This document shows, in pieces, positions 1-61,420 of a stretch of 64,000 nt of DNA. The translations under genes and the position numbers were made by a program. The first letter of the stretch is position 1; every line of letters starts with the position of its first letter. Under the pieces are notes generated by a model, which did not search any database, had not been told where the DNA came from, and was given only the letters and a program-made list of their open reading frames with translations. Origin of the DNA: Muricea muricata (taxonomy: Eukaryota; Cnidaria; Anthozoa; Malacalcyonacea; Plexauridae); assembly GCA_963855995.1 (NCBI GenBank), contig OY979720.1:17256430-17320429 (forward strand), in the 5' to 3' direction.

Positions 1-1013
1 CAACCTTCAATTAGGTGGGTGGAGGCTGTCAGCAAAAACTGTCAAACATCAGAACTTTCAGAAGAAGTTAGAAAGATTTTGTTGGCAGCCTGGAGACAAA
101 GTACTGGCTCAGCCTATTCCTCTGCCTGGAGTAAGTGGGTTAGCTGGTGTACTGAACGAGAAACTATTCCACTTTCAGCTTCTGTAGAGACTGTTTTAGA
201 GTTTCTTACAGAGCAATTCAATAATGGCAAGGCTTATAGGTCCATTAATGTTTATCGGTCAGCCTTATCAGCAGTGTTACCCCTAGTGGATACTTGTAAG
301 ATAGGGTCTCACCCTTTGGTTTCCCAGCTATTGAAAGGGATGTTTAATTTGCGACCGCCTCAGCCTCGATATTCGCATACATGGAATGTATCACAGGTAT
401 TGACTTACACAAAGTGAAGTCGATTGGGGTTAATAAAGATTTAAATCTGAAAATGCTATCCTTTAAATTAGTTACTCTTTTAGGTTTAACTGCTTCAGAT
501 AGATCTTCAGATCTTGCTAAGCGAGATTTACGATTTTGTACTTTTCTACCTAAAGGAGTGTCGTTCACTCTTCCTGGACTGACAAAAACTTCTAAGCCAG
601 GTGATCTACCAAAAACTAGTTTTCACGCGGCGTTTCGGGCAGATATAGATTTATGTCCAGTAGAATGTTTGAGGGTTTATTTGGACAGAACCAAGGGATT
701 TCGCTCCAATAATAAAGATCAACAAGATAAGTTATTTTTGTCGTTTGTAATTCCCCACAAACCGGTTTCGTCAGCTACTTTAGCTAGGTGGATCAAATCC
801 TATCTACAATTAGCGGGCATAGATACTTCGATTTTTTCTGCCCACTCTCTTCGAGGAGCTTCCACAACGGCAGCACTTAATCAGGGTGTTTCTCTGGCCG
901 ACATTTTGAAAATGGCAAATTGGTCTCAAGAGAGCACTTTCACACGTTTCTACTACAAGCCTCAATTTAATACGGTTCCTGGTAATGCAGTCTTATCAGC
1001 GAAACGTTCTTAA
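1..1013 (+). pseudogene. DIRS-like tyrosine recombinase, frameshifted, 5' truncated by window
   Basis: The reading frame is open from the window edge to the stop at 417 and resumes in another frame, running to the stop at 1013, so this is the 3' part of a recombinase ORF broken by a small frameshift near 404-419. The first part has the all-alpha core-binding domain of phage-integrase-type recombinases (AWRQSTGSAYSSAWSKW, then SINVYRSALSAVLP). The second part has the catalytic domain: an Arg region (LTASDRSSDLAKRD), the HSLRGAST motif (the H-x-x-R box) and the nucleophile region FTRFYYKP near the C terminus. This layout is typical of DIRS/Ngaro retroelements and of Cryptons. The inverted repeats just downstream favour DIRS. 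The frameshift and the absence of a reverse transcriptase in view suggest a dead copy, although the remainder lies outside the window. Confidence 0.85.
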
Positions 1014-7249: not shown

Positions 7250-10200
7250 ATGGATGGTACTCCCAATAAAACACCTCCTGACGACGGATATTATGAGAGG
7301 ACACAGCGAAGCACTGATGACGAACAAGAAGAACAAGAAACACAAAGCACCGAGAAAGAAAAAATATCTCTGAGTAATGTTCCGCCTACATCTGAGGCGA
7401 CAACCATGTACAACAACTATAAGCTTCTGTTGCTCTCTGCTGGTCGAATACTTCTTTCCAGCGACGTCGCGAAGCTGATGTCCTGGGCCACTCAAAATTT
7501 CCCAGTCGTTAACCCTGAAAACGCCACCCATGTCCTCTTTCAACTTGATGAAATCGGAGTCATCAATGCTACAGATTTAAGTCAACTTCGTCATTTCTTT
7601 GAATCTATTGTCAGATTTGATCTTGTACATATTATTGATGAATTCCTCATTGGAAATTATGCACCACTTCGACAGATTCCAGCTTCTAAAAAACGTGATG
7701 CAAGAACCACACAAAACCCTCAACATGGCACGATAACAAGAAATTCAAATATCTTCAATGCGGCGAGCACCAGCCAATTTTCCCGTCGAGGTTCATCAGC
7801 GAGAGCAGAAAACATCAATGAACCACCAAGCTCTATCCTTCAACAAAAGCAACAAGCTTTTCCCTCACTTTTCTCGAAACACCACACTTCTAACGGCGCA
7901 ACATTTTTAGCCAGATCTCCCAATGAAAATCGGTCCACAACCCACCAGCAACAACACATAAAATCTGGAACGGCTGGCAGCACTGAATCAAATCTAGTTG
8001 TTGGTAATGGTCCCGGTACAAGTAAGTTATTTTTTCTTTTGTCAAACCTTCTTGATCAAATACGAATTTTGATGAAGTGTTTCTAGGAAAAGTTATAAAC
8101 TGCTTTTAGACTAACTATGTTGTATTAACTACTTACTATTTTCCTAAAATTTCAACAAATATGAGGGATCCATTCCTGAAAGTAATGTTAATAATGATAT
8201 TTTTTATGAAAACACATATATGCTTGATTATCAGCTTATTACAAGGTTATTCTAACAAGTCTAGTACAAACACTGTATAACATAAATACTACATCATAAC
8301 GATGTCTGCCTATTTGGAACAACCTAGTGATAATTTGTACGATTTTTGCTTCTGTCAGAATTTCTGAGCTAAAAACAAGTAAAAACTCCGTCTGTAAGAA
8401 GGGTGGACTATATTTGAAGAATCCCAAGGGGTTTGTTTGTGACTACTAGCGCTATCTTACAAGAGTTGTTTGAAATATTTTGTTTGAAACAGATGAGAGA
8501 AGAACGACAACAGGAAGTTCTTCTGCAAATTCGTCTGCGACAAACAACCCAAAAAATACCCAGACAATTGGCAGCAATGCTTCAAAACTTTCCAAGTTCC
8601 AACGATATCAAGAGCAATCCGACATTTGGCTGTGCAGCCATTACAAACGACATTGTTACGTAAAATTCGAATGCTGTGATCAGTTTTGGCCGTGTCATCG
8701 TTGCCATAACAACCAAAGCACGTGCGGCAGCAAGAATTTACGTGACACCCAGTTGGTGAAGTGCGCCTATTGCAATAAAGTGCAACAGGTAACCCTTGTT
8801 ACCATAATTATAATTAGTAATGATCAATTATCACATGATCAAACACGTGTTATTTATATTGAGAAGAACAAGAATATCTTGTCATTGTTGGCATATAAAA
8901 GCACAATAAATATGGGTTACAATAAATACAATTAGAATACATTATGATCGTTCGAAGATTACAACAATCCTGATAAATGCCTTGACTGGTCATTTTGTTA
9001 TGTCCTCCCTAAAAGGTGTAGTAATCAGTGTAGTAATAATGGAGTTACATGACAGTGATATGCGATAGCTAATAAAAGTCCTTTTCTAATATAGTTCGGT
9101 CAGTACTGTTGTGACTGTGGTGCTAAATTTGCCAGTTATTATTGTGGAAAATGTAAACACTTGACTGGCACAGATGATCATCCTTATCATTGTGAAAAAT
9201 GTGGCATCTGCAGGTATATATAATTTATTGGCATACGAGACCCATAAAATTTCGTTGAGACCCATTGAATTTCGGCGTTTGTTAGCGGAAGCTAGCCTGT
9301 GTCCCAGACCACACATGGTTTGCGAAGGCCTGTCCATTGAACTATAAGTAAACTGGATCGATAAGTCAAGGGGGGATTGAAGCGAATTCGACTCAGTTTT
9401 TCTGAGTTTTTAGTTGAAATACTTAACGTCAAAAATTGGGCGGCATATCAAATGAAAGCTATTAAGAAGTTGTATTTAGTGTAAAAATTTCGAGACGTCA
9501 GGGAAAAGAAAAACAACAAGTTTGAAGGGAAATTTGCACTTGTTTTCGTATTTTTTGGGCATTAATTTTTTTGTCTAAAGTCTCGAATTTTTTATACTAA
9601 ATGAAACTTTTAATAGCTTCAATTTGATGTAGGGTCCGATCTTTAGCGTTAAGTATTTCGTCTCAAAACTCGGGAAAACTAACTTGGCTTCACCCATTAA
9701 CTGAACTTTTGTATTGAGTTAGCATTCCAGTTGTATTACAGTTCACTAGGTCTGCCACTAACTTTCCCACGAAAGTTCCGTTACTACCCGAGTACGGTTG
9801 TAACCAACGGTTGAACTAATCGGCTTTTGAACAACCAGCGCAAGGTGGTTATAATCTTTTACAGTCAGTCAGTGAATTGGTAACAGCATTCCGCTGTACC
9901 CACTCGGGTGTGCCATTAATAACTTCAGCCAGTGATATGACATATTACAGGAGCCTGAGATTTTTTGTGTTCAAAAAAGAAAGTTGATTTTGTTGGAAAT
10001 TCCAAGGTTGCGTTGTTTATACACACTGTTGATAACTCCGGTTTGATTCTATATTTTTAATGTAGAACCAATGGTAATCGTTCATTCCATTGTGATGTCT
10101 GCGGTATTTGTATGGATCTCGAGCGTCTCGGGAATCACATATGTCGTGAAGGTAGTGGACATGATGAGTGTTGCATTTGCTTGCAGGTACTGAGTATTGG

Positions 10201-17000: not shown

Positions 17001-20000
17001 ATTACACGTCCCTTAAAGTGTCAATTTATTTGCGTGCGCCCATAAGGGAGGTGTAAATTTAAACGACTCGCGTTATTATAACTGATGAAGATCGGAGCTT
17101 ACGGATCGAAAGCTTTTTGGGATGATAAATGTGCGTGGTGTTTCCACCAAATTAAACTGAAACTCGTGATTCTTGCTGGTATTTTATGTAAAGATTTTAT
17201 TTTAGGAAGAATTCTATTGGCCATGAAGACAGTGGCGTGGATCTTGACTCTCCCGTGAAAGTTTCGCAGGAGAATTTCAGCCAAGGTAGAGTTCAGATGT
17301 TTTGCAACTCAAGTGATTGGGTAGAGTACACAATTTGATAAAATTACACAATTCAAAATGTACAATAATTAACCAAGTCATGATAAGTATCTTAGTTTCT
17401 CATGGAGCTGACGTCCAGACCGAAAAAATTTTCCTGCGAAATGTATGCTCCCTTGATTCACAACTGTATCATGTGTTGATGTGTGGCATGAGATTAGAAA
17501 GTCTACAGGCGGGCTTGGCCCTCCCTCTCCTGCCGTAATTAGCAACCAGCCAATTTGCAATCTTCGGCAGTTGATCTCAAATTGATAAACACAGTAGACT
17601 GTTGTTTTTTAGGCAAAGTTGTTCAGCCGGTCAAAGCGAAGAAGCGAAAATCTGTGACTTTTTCTGACACACTTGTGAATGGACCCAATATTGAAAAACG
17701 TTCTCCCCAAACATCAGATGATAGAAAAACCCAAAATGGGGATAACTTGATGAAAGATTCTGACGATGATAATTTACCAGTGTTTCGGGTAAGTTTGGTT
17801 AAGGCAGATTCACACCTGCGGATTCTAGTGCGATTTTCTACTTTGTTGTAAGAAAGCTGAATAGCGATATCCACTGGATTGTGATTTTCTTAACCTTTCT
17901 AAACATGTTCAGTAACTGGTAAAACCCATATTAGTTCCGCATTTTCGAGTTAAAGTCACTGAACATCGAAAATATACAATACGCATATAAAGCTTAGTGA
18001 TCCGGTAGATAGCGTTTCTCATCTTTCGTATGCCCATTCACTGAAGTGAATTTGAAGGTGGATGTTTGTTTACACTAATCTTTACTTTTCAGACTGGTTT
18101 TTCCCCACGCAAATCGCTTCAACCAGAATATTTGTCATCTTTGGCTAACCGAACGGAGGTATGTAAATTACTCGCGAAAGAAACTCGTGAAATTTCAGAG
18201 ACATTGTAAAACTATGAAGGAGGATGCGTGTGCGACTCTATGTTTTTGTATGTTGCTAGCACAAGAGGTCCCCTCGTCGTAGCCGCGGTTCAAATATAAC
18301 TGCCAAAGATCTTCAAGAAAACAGGAGGGAAGCTTGGAGACGATCACAGAAACTGTTAGATGAAGTGGAGGAATCGTTTTCAAGAGAGATTGGTAGGCTT
18401 GTCCTGGCTACTTTCTTTTAATTTAACTCTTTTTTTAGTCTGTTTGATGATTTCCCCATATATGCCAGTGTACTACTATATTCTTGGGTTTCACTATGCC
18501 ATTATGTAGTGAATCCGGGTGGGGGAAAACCTCTAATGTATTGAAGTGAGCAAATGATATCAAGCACATATACTGATTTCCTCTAATGTAGAGTTGACCC
18601 ACTAAAATCTGTGACGCGACGTGAAACCCAAGAATAAAGTAGTCATTTCGTATTTGAGCTGGATTGTTTGGAGAGACACTGCGACAGAGAGGTTTTTTTT
18701 TTTTTGAAATAATGAGGCATCTTTTATATTTACTTGCTTCCATTTTAACTTTTTCTTTCCAGCCACTTTGCATTGCCCCTCTAAATAAATTATAGACGCT
18801 TTGTGGTTGGCAATCTAGAAATGGCTAAGCTGAACGCATAGATGATCAAAGCAGGGGGGGGGGGGTAACTAGCATCGTGAATAATTGCCGTTACTACATT
18901 TTTTCAATTTCAAAATCTTAGGATCAACGCAATTGTCGGTTGTGCAGACGATTTCAACAACGACTATTACGTCATCTTTGCCCTCGACTGCCATGTCGTC
19001 ACTTCCGGTTTCTGACATACCATCCACTGGTGTACAGACAACAGCAAGTCGACCTAAAACCATCTTGACTGGTCATTTCACCAACTTCAGTGGTGTCGAT
19101 CAGACAAGCCGTACGAATTCAGCCAATATAGGTAGTTCAAATACACTACTTGCTGACGCAGATGCGAAACTACAAAGTGGGATTCTTAGTGGATCAACAG
19201 GGACAGGTGGTTTGACGTTGGATTCATCAAAAAGTTCTTCAAAATCCCCAAGTATCACCGGGTTATTTGGTGGTACTTCAAGTACAGCTGCAGTATCGTT
19301 GTCAGCACCCTCACTGTCAGTGAACAATACTTCAACCAAGGCAAATACAACTACTCAACAATCGCCGTTTAGTTTGCAACCTTCTGTTACGTCATCCAAC
19401 GCAGCTTCAATTACAGGCATTTCATCAACTACGCATGTCACTCAGAATGCAAACCCTGGTCTTTTTAATTTTAAAACAAGCTCCCAAACGACAAATGGTA
19501 CTGGTACCAGTGTATCTGCAGGTCAGTCTGGATTGTCATTTCCTGCATCTGCAGTCACGAAAACAACCTCAGCCAGCGGCTTCTCTGCGCCTGCTGTACT
19601 AGAAGGAAACGTCAGCGGTGGGTTTACGTTCGCTACACAGCAGGGACAAAACACATCCGCTCAAAAGAGTTCTACTTTCACTGCGCCGGTGACAGAGAAA
19701 CCAAATATCACCAGCGGCTTTAGCTTCACTGCGCCCACGAACGATAAACAAACTACCAGTGGTGGTTTTACCTTCGTTGCGCCGACGAACGATAAACAAG
19801 CAAGCAGCAATGGGTTTAGGTTTACTGCGCCCACGGACAATAAACAAGCGACCAGCGGTGGTTTTAGCTTTACTGCGCCGACGAGCGATAAACAAGCTAC
19901 CAGCGGTGGTTTTAGTTTTACTGCGCCCACAAACGATAAACAGGCTACCAGTGGTGGTTTTAGTTTTACTGCGCCCACGAACGATAAACAAGCTACCAGC

Positions 20001-21276
20001 GGTGGCTTTAGCTTCACGGCGCCGACAAACAACAAACAAGCTACCAGCAGTGGTTTTAGCTTTACTGCGCCCACGAGTGATAAACAACCGACCAGCAGTA
20101 GCTTTGCCTTTACAGCGCCCTCGAATAATAAACAAGGGACCAGCGGTAGCTTTCCTTTCACTGCGCTCACGAATGATAAAGCAAATGCCAGCGGTGGATT
20201 TCAATTTACTGCGCCCACAAATGTTACAACAAGTGCCAGCGGTGGTTTTCAATTTGCAGCTCCAGCAGTGAACAACAACAATAACAACAATTTTACTGTA
20301 CCCACGGTTCCTAAAGCCAGTAACTCTAAAGGTGGATTTACATTCAATTCAGGAAACAAGCCTTTAAACACCGCCCAGAATGCTCCGATCTCATTTAATT
20401 TCGGTAAGTGGAATTCATGCTGTATATTAACAGTGTTTCGCTGGTGTCTTGAGGGTATTTTTTTACAAAATTAACACAGCGGATAGGGAAAAACGACGGG
20501 GTTGGAAAGAGTGAATTTCATCGTCGGGCTTTGTTTGACAATTGGTTTTGTGTTTGAGTAGAAAACTTAGAAATAACGCTATTTTTTCTCAAATCTTGCT
20601 TAGGGCAATAATAGTACACCCTTAAAAACGCACAAGTTGTTGTAAACCAACAAACATATTGTTACACACTAGTTATGTTCGTAAAGCTTGTTCTTAGTTT
20701 GTCATAACAAGTTTAGAAACAAGCTGTTAACAACTAGAACAAGGATGTTACAAGACTGAAGAAACAGGGTTGTAACAATATCATGTCTTACCTGTATCAC
20801 CCATGTTGGGACAACTTTGCAACAAGTCTGATAATGTGAACAAGGTTGTTACAAGTTGTTAACAGTTTGTTCTAAACTTCTTCTAGCAACTTGTGACGAG
20901 CCATGCGTACAGAACTTCTTTGGCAATGGACCATTCGCCTTTTAGACAAACTTTTGAATTAGGGATGTTTATTAGAACTGCTGAAAAAAGCATCCTAAAT
21001 TTAGTAAAATGGTGAAGTTTGGTTGCAAAATATTGTAATCTTTTCAGCTGTGCTAATGAATATTCCTAATTTCAAATTTTGTTTAAAAGGGGAATCGTCC
21101 TGCTTCTAATCAATTCTCTGACAGTCCAGTTCTATCTTCTTTCAGGTTCTCCCCCTCCTGCGGGCGGTTTTAATTTTGCGGGTGGATTTGCGTCGTCCAC
21201 TCCCATACCCACAAATTCGGGCAGAACGAGCAGCACGGTGGCGAAAACGAGACAACGGAGACGCGCAAGAAAATAG
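14025..21276 (+). CDS. POM121: POM121-like nuclear pore membrane nucleoporin
   Basis: Eleven exons join in phase: 14025-14449, 15280-15564, 16128-16217, 16459-16518, 16679-16870, 17206-17285, 17613-17788, 18093-18158, 18260-18392, 18922-20403, 21146-21276 (1039 aa). Residues about 5-33 form a membrane anchor (TGTLFSVALVIITFFLYGLK). A basic, Ser/Pro-rich middle follows, with lysine/arginine clusters (KAKKRKSVTF at 385-394, RKRTKE) of the kind that bind importins. Then comes a Ser/Thr-rich FG domain, and finally a strongly basic C terminus (TRQRRRARK). POM121 has the same order: transmembrane helix, nuclear localisation signals, FG repeats, basic end. It anchors the pore scaffold to the envelope. 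The ATG at 14025 (CAAGATGG) is preferred over the upstream in-frame ATG at 14004. AATAAA signals follow the stop (about 21307 and 21341). Confidence 0.85.
16938..17132. mobile_element. GATCCG-hairpin foldback family, copy 1 (POM121-like intron 5)
   Basis: The arms 16938-16985 and 17083-17130 are inverted copies carrying CATCCGTAAGCTCGAATCTT and CTGATGAAGATCGGAGCTTA, each itself a small hairpin. Related copies lie at 25795-25890, 41823-42066 and 46380-46515. A partial right terminus (GCGTGGTGTTTCCACCAAAT) follows at about 17134. Confidence 0.75.
19612..20270 (+). repeat. 48-bp coding tandem array of FG repeats
   Basis: About thirteen units of 16 codons have the consensus SGGFSFTAPTNDKQAT (protein residues about 735-952). 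Third-position variation between units is modest, which suggests ongoing unit turnover. Each unit carries a GF.F core, the hydrophobic cohesive motif of nucleoporins. Long ORFs on the minus strand and in the other plus frame here are by-products of the periodicity. Confidence 0.9.
20635..20895. repeat. AACAAGTTGTT-type degenerate short-repeat tract
   Basis: The tract is built of loosely repeated, self-complementary words such as TTGTTACAAGTTGTTAACA and AACAAGCTGTTAACAAC in POM121-like intron 10. Similar tracts occur at about 46228-46330, 50020-50200, 53195-53400, 57310-57420 and 59200-59470. Confidence 0.6.
20925..21080. mobile_element. Short copy of palindromic element family B
   Basis: The left end (GGACCATTCGCCTTTTAGAC, then AAACTTTTGAATTAGG) mirrors the right end (CTAATTTCAAATTTTGTTTA, AAAGGGGAATCGTCC). 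The arms match those of the full-length element at 28640-29035, so this copy seems internally deleted. Confidence 0.65.
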
Positions 21277-22377: not shown

Positions 22378-25300
22378 ATGTGGCTAACCATCACTTGGTT
22401 TCTTATAATTTTGCAACACTCGAATGGCAAGGATGAAGCTGCAAACGTCGTTAACAAATTAAAAGGTATTTTATTTCAACTTATTGTACCTTTGTTGCAA
22501 TCACTGAATCAGCACAATCATAACAATGTAGTAATTGTACATTGGCGTACTGAATAGTATAGCCGGGTTATTTCTGTTGGAATAATTCACATATCTTCGA
22601 GTTCTTTGATAGACTGTTGCGAATTTATTTGAATCTCAGAATGCCAAGCTTTTTGTTTAATAATTTTTTAGCCTTTATATAATCTTTAATCATTCATTCC
22701 ATGCAGCTGCTCATCTGTGACAGGTGCATGCGTGCATCACTCCAGCTAAAATTTAAAATTTTGCAGCAATTTTTCTTCCGTGGTGGTATATGCAATTCAT
22801 ATATGCAATAGACGTTAGAGATGCTTATGTCACACCGGAGTTAAACAATGAATTGCAATGCAATGTGGGAAACATGTGGGAAAAATTTACCTTGTATTTA
22901 TATGCATTGAAAACTGTGTGACGTAAGCATTTCTAAGGTGTGTTCATATGTACAATTCATAAGTATCATGGGCATCCTTTGTGGTGTGGATGTCATCATT
23001 GTAGCTTAATGAACAGGGACTGTAGAAGATCAGTAATTGAGGAGGCATTTACTCATATATTTGAGTTCAAAAGCCCTAAAAACAATTAATTTTAAAAGAA
23101 ATATTACTGAGGCAGAATATAAAGCCACCCATTTACTGATCTCTGCTGTCCCTAATGAATAATATCAATTGAGTTCACAATAAAGAACGAGCAATGTGTT
23201 CCAAGATGTACAAGACAACCCACAACAAATGACAGTAAGCTAGTCACACTGTAGCATCACAGCCGGAGTGGGCATTATGTCTTGGAAGTGTTCACACTGT
23301 CATTTTCGCATGATTTTCTCCCACTTGTGCAGGCTTCTAAAAACATTGACCAATCAATGATACACAAATATTTCGATTCTTCATAAGACATCTACTGAAA
23401 AATTTCAATCCACATTGTGGGGAGCAAAAATGACCAGAGTGCTTTAAATTGTGAAATACTGACCATATAGTTCTGTTAATCTTGACTAATTTAGTGGCGT
23501 GCCACTGCGTGCGAGCTTAGTTGGGCGACCTATGATTTACCATCCATTCTTGATTTCCAAACTGAAAAGTCTCATTTTTTGTGTAAAAGTTCTCTTTTTA
23601 TAAACAAGCTTAGCAGAAGGATGTCATGTGGAGGGGTCTCAAGTGGAGGGGTGTCACTCCCTGCAGCCAGTGGCGAAGCCAGGCTGACATTTGGTCATGC
23701 AAATGCAAATTGTTCTATGTTTAATGACTGTATAAAGAATCAATTTCTAAAGGAATGAATAATGATGATGATTTAAATTTGCATAGCATGACCCAATTGT
23801 CGGGCTGGCTTCATTACTGCCTGCAGCCTTCCCCCAGGGTGTACCCCTATCACTATAACATGTCTAATGCCGGTTTTGAATAAGTATATGCAAGGGATGT
23901 TAGGTCCATACATAAGTTGCCCCAGAGAATGTCAATCATTTATGTCCGAGGACATTTTCGTACTGTCTGATAAAATGTAAAATAAATATGATATGCTTGG
24001 AAGGTGCATTCAAATTCAATACAAAGACTGCAGAGCGTGTTATTTATAGGAAGGGACCATAGTTGAGCATTGAAAGTATGGGCAACACTGGGACATGTGT
24101 GGACACAACCCAGGGGCACATTGCTTAGAAATAAGCAAGTTTATCTGCCATGAAAAGTAGGAGCAGTAGTTACACTATTGAGCTAAGAACATGCATTTTG
24201 CAGTTGCCTTGATGTATTATTATTGACTTTATTTTAGGACATCTCGAGGCAATAGGATCTCAAGGTACATTGTTAGGAAATGTGCCAGAATTAAAGTTTG
24301 CTCCAGATGGGAGATATTTCTATAAAAAATTCATTCATGGACGGCAACCTGTTGTCATTCGAAACGCGGCAAGTCATTGGTTAGCTGTAAAAAACTGGCC
24401 AAACGAGACATACTTACACTTGACTTATGGGGAACTGCCATTTACAGTACTTATGTACAAAGTTTACAGGGATTCGTTAAGTGTTCGCAAGGACATGAAC
24501 CTGTCAGATTTCTTAGAGATTTACAAGGAACAACCAGTGTATTTGGATTCACAGTTTCCACCCTCAAATTTGATCAATGAAATAAATCTACCATCCATCC
24601 TGCAGTGTGAAGAGATCAGTTCAACTATAAGTGATGTGAACCTCCTTATGAACAGTGGAGGTGCTAGCTCGCCACTTCACCATGATGGCTACGAGAATGT
24701 CTTGGCAATTATCTCGGGAACAAAGAAAGTTATCCTCTTTGGTAGTTCCTACAGTACAAACGTCTATGCTGATGAGTTTACTGCGCTACCTGGCCTGTCG
24801 CCAATTGATCCTCAAAAAGTAGATTTGGAGAAGTTTCCTAAGTTTGCAGATGTGATGTATTATGAGTCTGTGCTTCATCCTGGTAAGTGTTGGAATATAT
24901 TAATGGTAAATGATGGTGTTTTATGGTGATAGTTGAGTGGTGGTGGTAACATACACGGGAGAGTTCTATTGTCAACTGTTTCTTGCCAACATTTGTGATG
25001 ATGTTGAAGAGTTATCGTTCTTTATTTTATAACTGTTTGCCGCGTCCACGATTCGGGCAACGAAGATAGTTACATACACGTACGCTTTTAAAAAAAGTTT
25101 GCGAACGCGACTCAGAAAAGAGCAATAACTCTCCAAAGTTTTTACAGATAGTATAAATATTGACGAGTGAGAGTTGCGTCATATGTTGCCCTCTCATGTT
25201 ACTGCAAACTCAGAAATGTTGAGAAAGTTAAAAATCGTGTGCGGTCATTGGGAAAAGTGGACGTGTTTTGGGCGTGGTTCAGCTCTTCCAATCGTGACTC

Positions 25301-28300
25301 TCCGAGATAACTCTCCGCTTCATAAGTCTCACTTCAGTCATGCCCAGTTATATTTGGCGACTAATGTTACTAGTTTTCTATAATATTAATATTTTCAGGA
25401 GACATTTTGTACATTCCTCAATACTGGTGGCATCATTTCACATCCGCAGGATCGCCAAACATTGCTGTTAATATTTGGTTTCAGATGTTTAACTACGAAC
25501 AACAGTTCGAAAGCGCAGGCCTGAAAGAAAGTCAAGATGTCGTCAAGGTGTGTGAAATAGTTAATAATTATGTAGCATCTGACTATTCAGCAGCGACTTG
25601 AACTAACAAACACACCAAACTATGTTTAAAATTTTTTATATAACAAGCGATCAGCGCTGTCGACTAATTTCCATAACCTTCCACAGGCATAGGGTGGTTG
25701 GGAATGAGACACTAATAAACTTTTGAAAAGAATGCATGACATGAGTTCCTTGTATGTTTGCATGGTGAATATCAAATTAAAATATAATTTTGTGGAAACA
25801 CTACGTGAGTTTATTATCGCATTATTAATAGCACTGATGAAGATCCGAGCTTACGGATCGACGTGGTGTAAAATTATATTTTAATGCATGACATATATCC
25901 TCATTATAACTGATATCTTTTTTATTTGGGGGAGGATTATTACAACTCGTCCTTAAACAAACTAACTGTAATTTAATATACACATTTAGGCTAAAAGGGT
26001 TGACAAAAATTCTTTATACTATAAGGCCCTCCAGCAAGAATCAAACATCCGCTTTGCGATGTTGTTGTAATTCCAAAGATGTAGGTTCAATTTCTGCCAG
26101 AGGACCTATAAGTTGATGATGAATGTTTCTCAACTGTTCCAAACTTGAATTTCGACATGTATGTTATTTGCACTCTAATTAAGGCATATATTAATCGTTT
26201 AGAAGTCCTAAGATCATCGTTGATTTACTATATTGCCCAAATTTTGCAACTTTCGAAACTTTTTTGAAACGAAACTCTGAATGGTTTAAATTTATTTTCG
26301 AGGATTGCAAACTATGGCAGAGCGTTGGCGATATTCATTTGGTAATCTAAACGAGATATTTCTCTTTCAGACCACAGAACTGTTTGAAAAGCTTGCTAAA
26401 GAAGAGCCTCAGAGCATCGAATGCAAAGAACAAGCGCCACCTCTTGATCAGATCTTAAAAATTGCCGTCAGTGATAGTTCGTCTGCATCACTGAGAATCC
26501 CGAAAGTCGCAAAACGACCAGAAGATTTTAAGTTGATTACTGGTTACACAAGTAAGAGTTTTGTTGTGGAAAACATGAGAAGAACTAAATGAAAAAGTTT
26601 AAAACTAAATGAAAAGAGTGTTTAACCTCGATGATATAGTCATTTGTAAAAAATGCGTCGACGTTAAAGCTAAAAATTTCGTCTGAGAAAGGCAAAGCAA
26701 TGCAAGAAACAAAGGGTGGACTGTTTGTAGAGGAATCGTTTGGGGGCATCAGCAACCTCGTTTTATTGCTGTTCAAACTTAGAGAAATTTGCTTGAATTT
26801 AAGCCCTTCAAACGTCGTGCAAACATAGATTTTTCATAATAAAACTGTTCTTCTCTCGTCTTGTAGTGCCTGCCTTGGGTTTCGGGACAGCTGCTCTCCA
26901 TCCAGATGACAGATCACCAGCAATTTTAACTGCCTTGGATTCAGGGTATAGGTAAGTACAACATTTTAGCTTAGTGAATGCATTGTGGAATAATTGTTAG
27001 GCCTGGAATTCTCGCTTTGTAAGAAAGGCAAGAAGGAGGAAAGACTGGTAGTAAATAATGAGAAACATTTTGTTGCTGTTTCTCAAATTAATGACCACAT
27101 TTATCATGATTACAGGTTGTTTGATACAGCACAAGTATATGGAACGGAGGGTAATTTAGGAGCTGCAATCAAGGAACGAAATATTCCACGTGAAGACGTA
27201 ACCATAGTTACGAAACTTCATCCCCAGTACCATGGCTATGAGTCCACGATCTCTGCCGTGCAAGGCTCGCTCGAGAATCTTCAAACTGATTATATCGATG
27301 TGTTTCTAATCCACACAAAACACTGCGATGGAGGATACTTCAAATGTCCTGAAGGTAAATTCGCTGGGATGGCAGCGGTTGCTTGATTTTCTACTTTTAT
27401 TTAAATAACTAGTTAAGAAATTTTGAAAATATGACTAAATTATTGGCAATCGATTTAGTTTCCTCGAGGAATATTTCTTACAAATTCCTTAAGCAATGTA
27501 AACCTGTAAGATTTTTATATGTCTTGGTGTTTTTTGCTCAACAAAGCACGAAAAATAATCGACCAGACTCGAATTGTGACATACTCGAACCGACCTGACC
27601 TGACCACGTACGTAGTTCAGTAGGCAGTCTGAGCATTTGGCTAGCATTCAAAAGGTCGTAGGTTCGCGAGCATAATTTTCACCTGAGTGCGAAACACGCA
27701 GATATAATTGTGATAAAATTAGTGAACAATTGCTTAGTCTAGTATATAAAAAATGCCGTGTCTTCCTTCTTTAGGTAAACCAGAAGGAACTTGGAAAGAC
27801 AGCTGGCGTGCTATGGAGTATCTTTACAATGAAGGGGAAATACGCAGTCTTGGTGTCAGTAATTTTGATCTCATCGACATGAGAGAGTTAATGAACTTTA
27901 CCAAAGTCTCTGTGGCGGTTGTGCAGAACTGGTTTGATCCGTTTCATCAGGATGAATCCGTGAGAGGATTCTGTAGGAAACATCAGATTCATTACATGGG
28001 TTATTCGACTTTAGGTTGGTTATAATTTTTTCCAACAGGCATGGGACTTTGTTACACGTTAAAACTTGGTTAAAAATAAGCTGATACGTTAACAGTGATG
28101 TCAACATTTCTCTGACGTTGTTTTACAAAAACTTGTTCAACATTACCAAACAGACGTCAAAATTATGTAATGTTTGATTTTATCTCGTCGATTTGATTTG
28201 AAATTTCGACGTTGTTTTAAAATCGTTGAGTCATATAGTTGATGAGGTCGACAACGTAATTTCTCCGCTGTTTTAGCGTCAAGAAAATAACGTTTTGTTT

Positions 28301-29709
28301 CCAATCATTTTTCAACATTAATTGCCCACAATGTTCAAACACATTGAGTTCACCACTTGTTAGGAATACTTACCAATAAAATGGTTTTTAAAATCTTTAT
28401 TTTTCAACAATTATATTTAGGTTCTCAGTGGACTGCTTATGGAGGCCTGGAGAGCAATCCCGTGCTTACTTCTCCGACGTTTTTTGAGATTGCGAGTCAT
28501 TATGAGTTCGTTATCGCTCAAGTCATATTGAGGTTGTATAAACTACACTGTGCAACTTTGTTTAGAACTGTTGCATGCAATTCTCATAAACTATGCTTGC
28601 TTGCGTTTATTCATCTCTGCATTACAAATATTTAACCCTTTCTCACTGAACCATTCCCCTTTTAGGCAAACTTTTGAATTAGGAATATTCACCAGTACTG
28701 CTGGAAAGAGCATCCTAAATTTAGTCAAGCTTTGAAGTTTGGTTGCAAAATATTGTAAAATGTGGAAAATATAGACTTGTGAAGTTTGAAAATTTTATAT
28801 ACTTTTGTATTATGCGCAGAAAAGTGCAATCAGAATTCGAAATCTAATTACACTTTTCCGCGCATATTACAATAGTATATACAAAATTTGCAAACTTCAC
28901 AGGACTATATTTTCCACATTTTACAATGTTTTGGAATCAAATTTCACAGCTTTACTAAATTTACGATGCTCTTTCCAGCTGTGCTAATGAACATTTCTAA
29001 TTCAAAAGTTTGTCTAAAACGGAAATGGTCCATTTCGGACGAAAATGACGTTTTAAAATCCTGGAAAGTCACAGCTCTTTTACGTGACTAGAACAGCTTT
29101 TGGTACACATTACTTAATTAAGGATTGGATGATAAATAGAAAACGTTCCTGAAAGATGCATTAAAGACCATTTACATTTTTGCTTCTGCACCGTTTAGAT
29201 AAAGAGGATATTTTAGGGACAGTTTCATTGGTGGAGCCTGCCCATCTTTGCCTATTACCAACTCACGACCAGTATTATAAGTTGTCAAATTATCAGTTCC
29301 AAAATTCTGAGTTTACTGATAAAATACTTAGTTTAAGAATATGATCAGTGGTCGGCAGTCTTTGTTCTTGAACCTTATCAGGATTCATAAACTGATGCTT
29401 GCACCCGATTCTATTAGGTGGGCCATTCATTTGAATGTGACTGTCATCCCTCGTTCACGTGATCCACGACACATCCTCCTCAACTTCAAGGCACTTGATA
29501 TTGAACTCAGCACAGACGAGATCAAGCTTATCACCGAGGAGTGGTTGCCAAATAGCAGCGGCACAGCCGAGGAGAAAGGGAAAGAATGGGAGAGTCCGGA
29601 AACGGATGAGGTGGAGCTTGGTAATTCAGAAGAATTAGAAGACACTGGGAAAGAGAATGATGGGAGCGATAACATCGTGATTGGCGGTGAAAATAGAGAT
29701 GAACTTTAG
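22378..29709 (+). CDS. ER-lumen JmjC hydroxylase / aldo-keto reductase fusion protein
   Basis: Nine exons join in phase: 22378-22465, 24238-24882, 25399-25547, 26371-26551, 26867-26951, 27116-27354, 27775-28014, 28421-28532, 29418-29709 (676 aa). The N terminus (MWLTITWFLIILQHSNG) is a signal peptide; an in-frame stop five codons upstream fixes the start. Residues about 40-300 form a KDM8/JMJD-like JmjC domain with Fe(II) ligands H177, D179 (PLHHDGYENV) and H256 (IPQYWWHHF) and a 2-oxoglutarate lysine at K192. Residues 355-625 form a complete aldo-keto reductase with catalytic D386, Y391, K416 and H449 (FDTAQVYG, VTKLHP, FLIHTKHC) and the nucleotide-site motif TVIPRSRDPRH. The acidic tail ends in RDEL, a KDEL-type ER retrieval signal. 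The reductase has no start of its own; its first Met codon is split across an intron. Dioxygenase plus NADPH reductase activity in the ER is inferred; the substrate is unknown. The exon 8 donor (GTTGTA) is weak. Confidence 0.9.
22807..22942 (-). mobile_element. Dispersed MITE family A, copy 2
   Basis: This is the reverse orientation relative to 4033-4147. The ends are AATAGACGTTAGAGATGCTT and a right end containing GTGACGTAAGCATTTCTAAG; the interior is TTGCAATGCAATGTGGGAAA. It lies in intron 1 of the JmjC-AKR gene. Confidence 0.75.
23668..23820. mobile_element. MITE family C, copy 1
   Basis: The inverted ends CAGTGGCGAAGCCAG and GGCTGGCTTCATTACTG flank AATCAATTTCTAAAGGAATG and AAATTTGCATAGCATGACCC. 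The same structure occurs at 41612-41763. Confidence 0.7.
25795..25890. mobile_element. GATCCG-hairpin foldback family, copy 2 (JmjC-AKR intron 3)
   Basis: It contains GTGGAAACACTACGTGAGTT, then CACTGATGAAGATCCGAGCT and TACGGATCGACGTGGTG. The preceding TTGTATGTTTGCATGGTGAA is shared with the element at 41823-42066. The interior is truncated. Confidence 0.65.
27588..27672 (+). mobile_element. tRNA-derived SINE head, degraded
   Basis: The leader GACCTGACCTGACCACGTAC is followed by an A-box-like TAGTTCAGTAGGCAG and a B-box-like GGTCGTAGGTTCG. It lies in intron 6 of the JmjC-AKR gene and shares its leader with the sequences at 12913 and 56766. Confidence 0.55.
28640..29035. mobile_element. Palindromic element family B, long copy
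   Basis: The arms are about 170 bp. Left: CATTCCCCTTTTAGGCAAAC, GCATCCTAAATTTAGTCAAG, AAAATGTGGAAAATATAGAC. Right: GTCTATATTTTCCACATTTT-like sequence, CTAAATTTACGATGCTCTTT, GTTTGTCTAAAACGGAAATG. The centre carries a second palindrome around CGCAGAAAAGTG / CACTTTTCCGCGC. It lies in intron 8 of the JmjC-AKR gene. Shorter relatives lie at 20925-21080 and, more diverged, at about 13560-13830. Confidence 0.75.

Positions 29710-35489: not shown

Positions 35490-61420
<25,931 letters not shown>

What the first reader, a model, noticed from the sequence alone, without database searches (positions are those of the whole stretch)
22378..29709. A secreted-pathway JmjC dioxygenase fused to an aldo-keto reductase, with an RDEL tail
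Seen: nine exons close in phase to one 676-aa frame with a signal peptide, an intact JmjC metal triad (H177, D179, H256), an intact reductase tetrad (D386, Y391, K416, H449) and a C-terminal RDEL. Known: JmjC/cupin hydroxylases oxidise protein or RNA side chains with Fe(II) and 2-oxoglutarate; aldo-keto reductases reduce carbonyls with NADPH; KDEL-like tails keep soluble proteins in the ER. Inference: one ER protein pairs an oxidising and a carbonyl-reducing site, so it may process the same substrate in two steps. I know of no such characterised protein.
Basis: partly seen in the sequence, partly recalled or inferred. Interest (0 to 1): 0.88.

Follow-up and report, generated by a model that had tools for sequence, protein, structure and literature searches.

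The report
ER-bound JmjC oxygenase–aldo-keto reductase fusion
A coral gene makes one protein that joins an oxygen-inserting enzyme to a carbonyl-reducing enzyme and carries an ER-retention tail; the same unstudied fusion occurs in many cnidarians, a brachiopod and apparently algae, so it is a real, old, uncharacterised enzyme family rather than a prediction error.

Summary
Observation confirmed. Nine GT-AG exons give a 676-aa protein with all seven named catalytic residues and an RDEL end; Pfam gives Cupin_8/JmjC and Aldo_ket_red. The fusion is not private: 23 database entries carry both domains, among them octocorals, stony corals, anemones, Clytia, Lingula and unnamed alga-like sources. Octocoral-type orthologues keep a KDEL-like end; hexacoral relatives add ShK and/or PQQ-type propeller domains. 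A paralogue in this genome has the same intron, in position and phase, inside the first reductase strand, so linker and reductase start share one exon: the proposed refutation fails.

The two-step idea is only partly supported. Clytia P0012 and P0009 have a wrecked JmjC site with an intact reductase, Lingula the reverse, and P0104/P0105 have JmjC and propeller without reductase, so the modules are separable. The model of the Paramuricea orthologue shows two confident domains and a poorly predicted linker. Substrate, cofactor preference and localisation are untested. Nine paper searches found no description of the architecture.

The parts
22378..22465 (+). Exon 1: start codon, hydrophobic N-terminus (signal-peptide-like), residues 1-29
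24238..24882 (+). Exon 2: most of the JmjC/Cupin_8 domain; H177 codon 24678-24680, D179 codon 24684-24686, 2OG-lysine candidate K192
25399..25547 (+). Exon 3: end of JmjC core; H256 codon 25431-25433
26371..26551 (+). Exon 4: linker (with C312) and the first residues of the reductase domain (343-354, by the P0001 model aligned to aldose reductase), so both domains share this exon
26552..26866 (+). Intron 4, phase 1 inside Met355; same position and phase in the paralogue on C15 and, as read from run-out residues, in nine single-exon ORFs of unnamed sources
26867..26951 (+). Exon 5: start of the reductase barrel (MPALGFGT)
27116..27354 (+). Exon 6: reductase tetrad D386, Y391, K416, H449 and the two-cysteine loop C453/C460 (codons 27324-27326, 27345-27347)
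27775..28014 (+). Exon 7: reductase barrel (GVSNF, QNWFDP)
28421..28532 (+). Exon 8: reductase barrel
29418..29709 (+). Exon 9: cofactor-phosphate loop (VIPRSRDPRH), acidic tail, RDEL at 29695-29706, stop

Best explanation
It is an ER-lumen two-module oxidoreductase. The first module is a JMJD5/JMJD7/FIH-type Fe(II)/2-oxoglutarate oxygenase that most likely hydroxylates a side chain of a secretory-pathway client. The second is a carbonyl reductase of a distinct 'two-cysteine-loop' aldo-keto reductase subfamily. A linker tethers them, and the RDEL tail retrieves the protein to the ER. I think the fusion mainly co-localises and co-dosages two activities of one secretory pathway rather than forming a rigid substrate channel. 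Shown: gene, domains, catalytic residues, conservation of the fusion, separability in relatives. Inferred: ER location, hydroxylation, carbonyl reduction, shared pathway. Unknown: the client and the cofactor preference.
Against: Total sequon number in the window protein is no higher than in shuffles (4 vs mean 3.1, P 0.37). No signal-peptide predictor or localisation data. P0005, P0013, P0155 and the partial rows P0014, P0015, P0025 show no hydrophobic N-terminal segment (their starts may be mis-predicted). Among the 28 rows, KDEL-like ends occur only in the four octocoral-type proteins (P0009 ends KGEL), so ER retention is not a family trait. The linker is as conserved as the domains between window and Paramuricea (89.6%), which would also fit a specific domain contact.
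Confidence: 0.5

Rival explanations
1. Two-step enzyme on one substrate: the JmjC site oxidises a group to a carbonyl or unstable hemiaminal and the reductase converts that carbonyl to an alcohol on the same client.
For: Both sites intact in most fused relatives; one fused reductase clade shared by animals and alga-like sources; similar divergence of both halves where intact.
Against: Halves separate in nature: JmjC dead in P0009/P0012, reductase absent in P0104/P0105, reductase residues lost in Lingula P0013; no confident domain arrangement in the model.
Confidence: 0.2
2. A small-molecule enzyme, such as a lipid-carbonyl or prostaglandin reductase, with the JmjC half as an accessory oxygenase; one database entry names the Paramuricea orthologue 'Prostaglandin F synthase'.
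For: Name of P0001; trypanosomatid prostaglandin F synthases among the best solved matches.
Against: The match is generic: aldose reductases and bacterial reductases score about as well; the JmjC half resembles protein hydroxylases; hexacoral relatives carry ShK and/or propeller domains.
Confidence: 0.15
3. One catalytic module plus one mainly binding or regulatory module; the non-catalytic one differs between lineages.
For: JmjC domain without its active site still recognisable in P0009/P0012, reductase domain without Tyr/His kept in P0013; JmjC half more diverged than the reductase in pairs with the dead rows (71.5% vs 50.9%).
Against: In the window protein and most relatives both sites are complete.
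Confidence: 0.12
4. Gene-model artefact: two neighbouring genes joined in error.
For: None found; no RNA-seq for this genome was available.
Against: Full-length orthologues; 688-aa frame in a 2,533-nt contig; conserved junction intron in the paralogue and in single-exon ORFs.
Confidence: 0.02

Closest known systems
JMJD5 (KDM8), JMJD7 and FIH, JmjC protein hydroxylases
   Same: JmjC fold, HxD...H triad, lysine 13 residues after the Asp, overall sequence and model of a JmjC-only relative
   Different: Those are not known to be fused to a reductase and are not ER proteins (recalled); the position of JMJD5 Glu238 (substrate contact, recalled) is Leu101 here by my reading of the alignment, so arginine is not implied for the window protein, although the five hexacoral ShK forms P0004-P0008 do have Glu there
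JMJD8, an ER-lumen JmjC-only protein
   Same: JmjC domain in the ER lumen; described as the first such protein (PMC5684140, abstract and passages seen)
   Different: JmjC-only per the paper, with no reductase; direct sequence comparison with JMJD8 not done
Aldo-keto reductases of the aldose reductase type
   Same: Barrel fold, D/Y/K/H tetrad
   Different: Secretory-looking, fused, two-cysteine insert after the catalytic His, altered phosphate-binding Arg
Uncharacterised cnidarian proteins such as Paramuricea 'Prostaglandin F synthase', Dendronephthya LOC114518412, Nematostella LOC5518642
   Same: Same JmjC-reductase architecture
   Different: Hexacoral forms add ShK and/or PQQ-type propeller; no function reported in the searches made

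Membership tests
JmjC / Cupin_8 2OG oxygenase | HxD...H metal triad | tested here: met
   H177, D179, H256, aligned to JMJD5
JmjC / Cupin_8 2OG oxygenase | 2OG-binding lysine 13 residues after the Asp (role recalled) | tested here: met
   K192, aligned with a JMJD5 lysine
JmjC / Cupin_8 2OG oxygenase | double-stranded beta-helix fold | tested here: met
JmjC / Cupin_8 2OG oxygenase | 2OG turnover | not testable with these tools
   needs assay
JMJD5-type arginyl hydroxylase | substrate-contacting Glu238 (role recalled) | tested here: not met
   Leu101 at the aligned position (my reading); His, His, Asp in the other three octocoral-type rows, Glu in the five hexacoral ShK rows
Aldo-keto reductase | Asp-Tyr-Lys-His tetrad | tested here: met
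   D386, Y391, K416, H449
Aldo-keto reductase | (alpha/beta)8 barrel | tested here: met
Aldo-keto reductase using NADPH | Arg contact to the NADPH 2'-phosphate (role recalled) | tested here: not met
   His598; His or Asn in all 23 fused rows, but His also in 3 of 7 alga-type and 2 of 10 other reductases there; the neighbouring Lys is Arg592
ER-resident soluble protein | C-terminal KDEL-type signal | tested here: met
   RDEL; KDEL/KDEL/KEEL in the other octocoral-type proteins
ER-resident soluble protein | cleavable signal peptide | tested here: inconclusive
   hydrophobic N-terminus conserved, no dedicated predictor
Prostaglandin F synthase | PGH2/PGD2 reduction | not testable with these tools
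   a source's name only

The most novel reading that the evidence does not exclude
JmjC-reductase proteins carry out an undescribed oxidise-then-reduce modification of secretory proteins, kept since before animals and some algae parted or passed between them, and split in medusozoans into one JmjC-active and one reductase-active paralogue.
Probability: 0.2. Interest if true: 0.85.

Novelty: new variant of a known kind. Interest (0 to 1): 0.6.

Why it matters
It adds a conserved, apparently undescribed enzyme architecture to the small set of ER-lumen 2OG oxygenases. Nature has already run the separation experiment (JmjC-dead, reductase-dead and reductase-less relatives), so the question whether two tethered redox enzymes share a substrate can be tested directly with existing proteins.

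Tried and rejected
Gene-prediction artefact: rejected on orthologues and the shared junction intron.

Prokaryotic or viral origin of the fusion: a viral-contig scan gave 18 loci, all matching only JmjC residues (169-273, one to 280); I did not examine those loci further. A scan of prokaryote genomes gave one locus, reductase region only (residues 330-619, Hoyosella); both patterns of that scan lay in the reductase. Both scans are pattern-limited, so absence is weak evidence.

DMSP biosynthesis (the reductase and decarboxylase steps of the transamination pathway; PMC11306096, passages seen): considered because corals and algae both make DMSP; dropped to a few percent because the protein looks secretory, a methylation lies between those two steps, and that paper's bacterial decarboxylase domain is of another family.

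Propeller history: group I and group II propellers hit each other above outside propellers by BLAST (236 vs 102 bits for P0005), but the propeller tree is unresolved with long branches meeting (only the last 430 residues of P0043 were used), so loss of the propeller in octocorals is likely, not shown. The JmjC tree also has long branches meeting (P0009 with P0012, C13 with JMJD5), and JmjC-only rows (P0155, P0147, P0104, P0105) fall among the fused ones, which fits reductase loss or fragments but does not by itself show a single fusion.

Excess glycosylation sequons: not found.

Papers: nine searches. Four found nothing. Searches listed 3 of 3, 15 of 83 and 5 of 5 papers; from titles and abstract starts none describes this architecture. 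led to JMJD8 (its second listed paper was not opened) and to the DMSP paper. One library only; preprints are not held and most subscription papers are missing.

Full report
The gene. Reading the window and rebuilding the splice pattern gave nine GT-AG exons between 22378 and 29709 and a single 676-residue frame. All seven residues named as catalytic are present, and the protein ends in RDEL. Pfam places Cupin_8 at 57-276 and Aldo_ket_red at 358-620, both far above cut-off.

It is not chance and not a mis-joined model. The protein database holds full-length counterparts in Paramuricea clavata (82%, 100% of the query) and Dendronephthya gigantea (76%), with a similar short hydrophobic start and a KDEL end. 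P0003, an unnamed sequence that groups with the octocorals, encodes 688 aa in a 2,533-nt contig, and P0093 carries a transcript-style name; I read both as cDNA, which is an inference. The strongest structural argument is the domain junction. Exon 4 of the window encodes the linker and, by the P0001 model aligned to aldose reductase from residue 343, the first residues of the reductase; intron 4 sits in phase 1 inside the Met355 codon. The paralogue in the same genome (contig C15) has the intron at the same place and phase. Nine single-exon ORFs of unnamed sources run out at this same point with residues that fit A|GTAAG: P0147, and the eight short ORFs P0172, P0175, P0176, P0180, P0181, P0184, P0186 and P0187, which are 73-92% identical to Oculina P0010. 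The script's pattern found eight of the nine, plus two unrelated matches in P0107 and P0151; P0187 was read from its printed sequence. So the shared exon appears to predate the split of the two paralogue groups.

A family with several layouts. Three protein searches (each scored only about 8,000 candidates and one search listed 120 of 131, so absences mean little) returned 23 listed entries with both domains, two of them isoforms of one Nematostella locus. Layouts: octocoral-type JmjC-reductase-KDEL; hexacoral JmjC-reductase-ShK-propeller (Oculina, Actinia and three unnamed); JmjC-reductase-propeller, most with an N-terminal hydrophobic segment that may be an anchor (Oculina, Nematostella, Actinia, Montipora, Stylophora and two unnamed); JmjC-reductase with an internal hydrophobic segment and no propeller (P0093, unnamed); P0009 and Clytia P0012; Lingula P0013; and P0014, P0015 and P0025 from unnamed sources that I call alga-like because their reductases sit beside reductase-only rows, one of which is named Trebouxia. 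The reductase tree (40 rows) puts all 23 fused rows, the window's included, in one clade (97/94), and groups them with the reductase-only rows that share the two-cysteine loop. Within cnidarians it separates a group I (octocoral-type, hexacoral ShK-propeller, JmjC-dead forms) from a group II (propeller forms without ShK). The JmjC tree shows the same broad split but with weak deep support, long branches meeting and JmjC-only rows among the fused ones. The window's genome has one gene of each group: this one and C15:3213555-3224959, whose catalytic residues read intact in the matched exons. In that search (44 of 84 candidates scored) no propeller or ShK match lay in the window, so this gene most likely really ends at RDEL.

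Catalytic inventory (window plus 27 chosen relatives). Of 27 rows that cover the JmjC triad, 25 keep it; P0009 has Tyr/Ala/Met and Clytia P0012 lacks the Asp. K192 is kept in 23 of 27; P0013 and P0025 have Arg there. Of 23 rows covering the reductase tetrad, 22 keep it, five of them (P0011, P0088, P0089, P0014, P0015) with the Tyr shifted by an insertion; Lingula lacks the Tyr and has Lys for His. P0104 and P0105 keep JmjC and propeller, with no reductase domain listed and 3 residues aligned to that region. P0104's name format suggests Clytia (recalled); if right, one animal holds a JmjC-active and a reductase-active protein separately. In pairs with the JmjC-dead rows the JmjC half differs more than the reductase half (mean 71.5% vs 50.9%, 39 pairs), against 46.5% vs 47.2% in 153 intact pairs and 68.8% vs 61.1% in 18 pairs with Lingula (JmjC measured over residues 140-276). 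This indicates that the covalent link is dispensable in some lineages.

Details that bear on mechanism. C453 and C460, just after the catalytic His, are in 23 of 23 fused rows and 7 of 7 alga-type reductases, but in 0 of 10 other reductases: a subfamily mark and probably a disulfide. C153 and C312 are present in 27 of 27 covered and 28 of 28 rows. The cofactor loop reads IPRSRDPRH: the Lys of IPKS is Arg and the phosphate-binding Arg is His (Asn in the five hexacoral ShK forms), so NADPH preference should be measured, not assumed; His also occurs there in 3 of 7 alga-type and 2 of 10 other reductases. The residue aligned with JMJD5 Glu238 is Leu101 by my reading, so arginine is not the predicted client here, though P0004-P0008 have Glu.

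Judgement. I accept the observation fully and the reading 'one ER protein with an oxidising and a reducing site' as well supported by sequence. I do not accept sequential processing of one substrate as shown. The most economical view is a tethered pair of secretory redox enzymes acting in one pathway. Nothing found in nine paper searches describes the architecture.

Noticed in passing
window 28647-28801 and 28878-29032: Large inverted repeat (155-nt arms, 86% complementary, 76 nt apart) inside intron 8, like a foldback or MITE-type element.
   Followed up: partly
window 348-1013: 221-aa open frame with a Phage_integrase (tyrosine recombinase) domain, E 7.8e-10, probably a mobile element.
   Followed up: no
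window 39798-40875: 21-bp tandem array, 51 copies at 92% match, open in several frames, one reading DGSFTGH.
   Followed up: no
window 46652-58330: Pieces of an SNF2/CHD-type helicase gene: two SNF2-rel_dom open frames and a weak CHDCT2 match below cut-off.
   Followed up: no
window 18885-20474: 529-aa open frame with repeats of the form SGGFSFTAPTNDKQAT, nucleoporin-like by eye; no Pfam match.
   Followed up: no
window 8474-8935: CHY zinc finger, E 6.6e-9.
   Followed up: no
L042, L043, L044 (own genome C13, C5:9.68M, C6): Further JmjC genes with a similar start of the JmjC region; no reductase match was seen in the stretches fetched (5.5-6 kb each): perhaps a small secretory JmjC family in this coral.
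   Followed up: partly
P0022 (977 aa): GMC oxidoreductase fused to an aldo-keto reductase, another oxidase-reductase fusion.
   Followed up: no
P0092 (1673 aa): JmjC-reductase-propeller preceded by a BTB/Kelch protein; probably two genes merged in that annotation.
   Followed up: no
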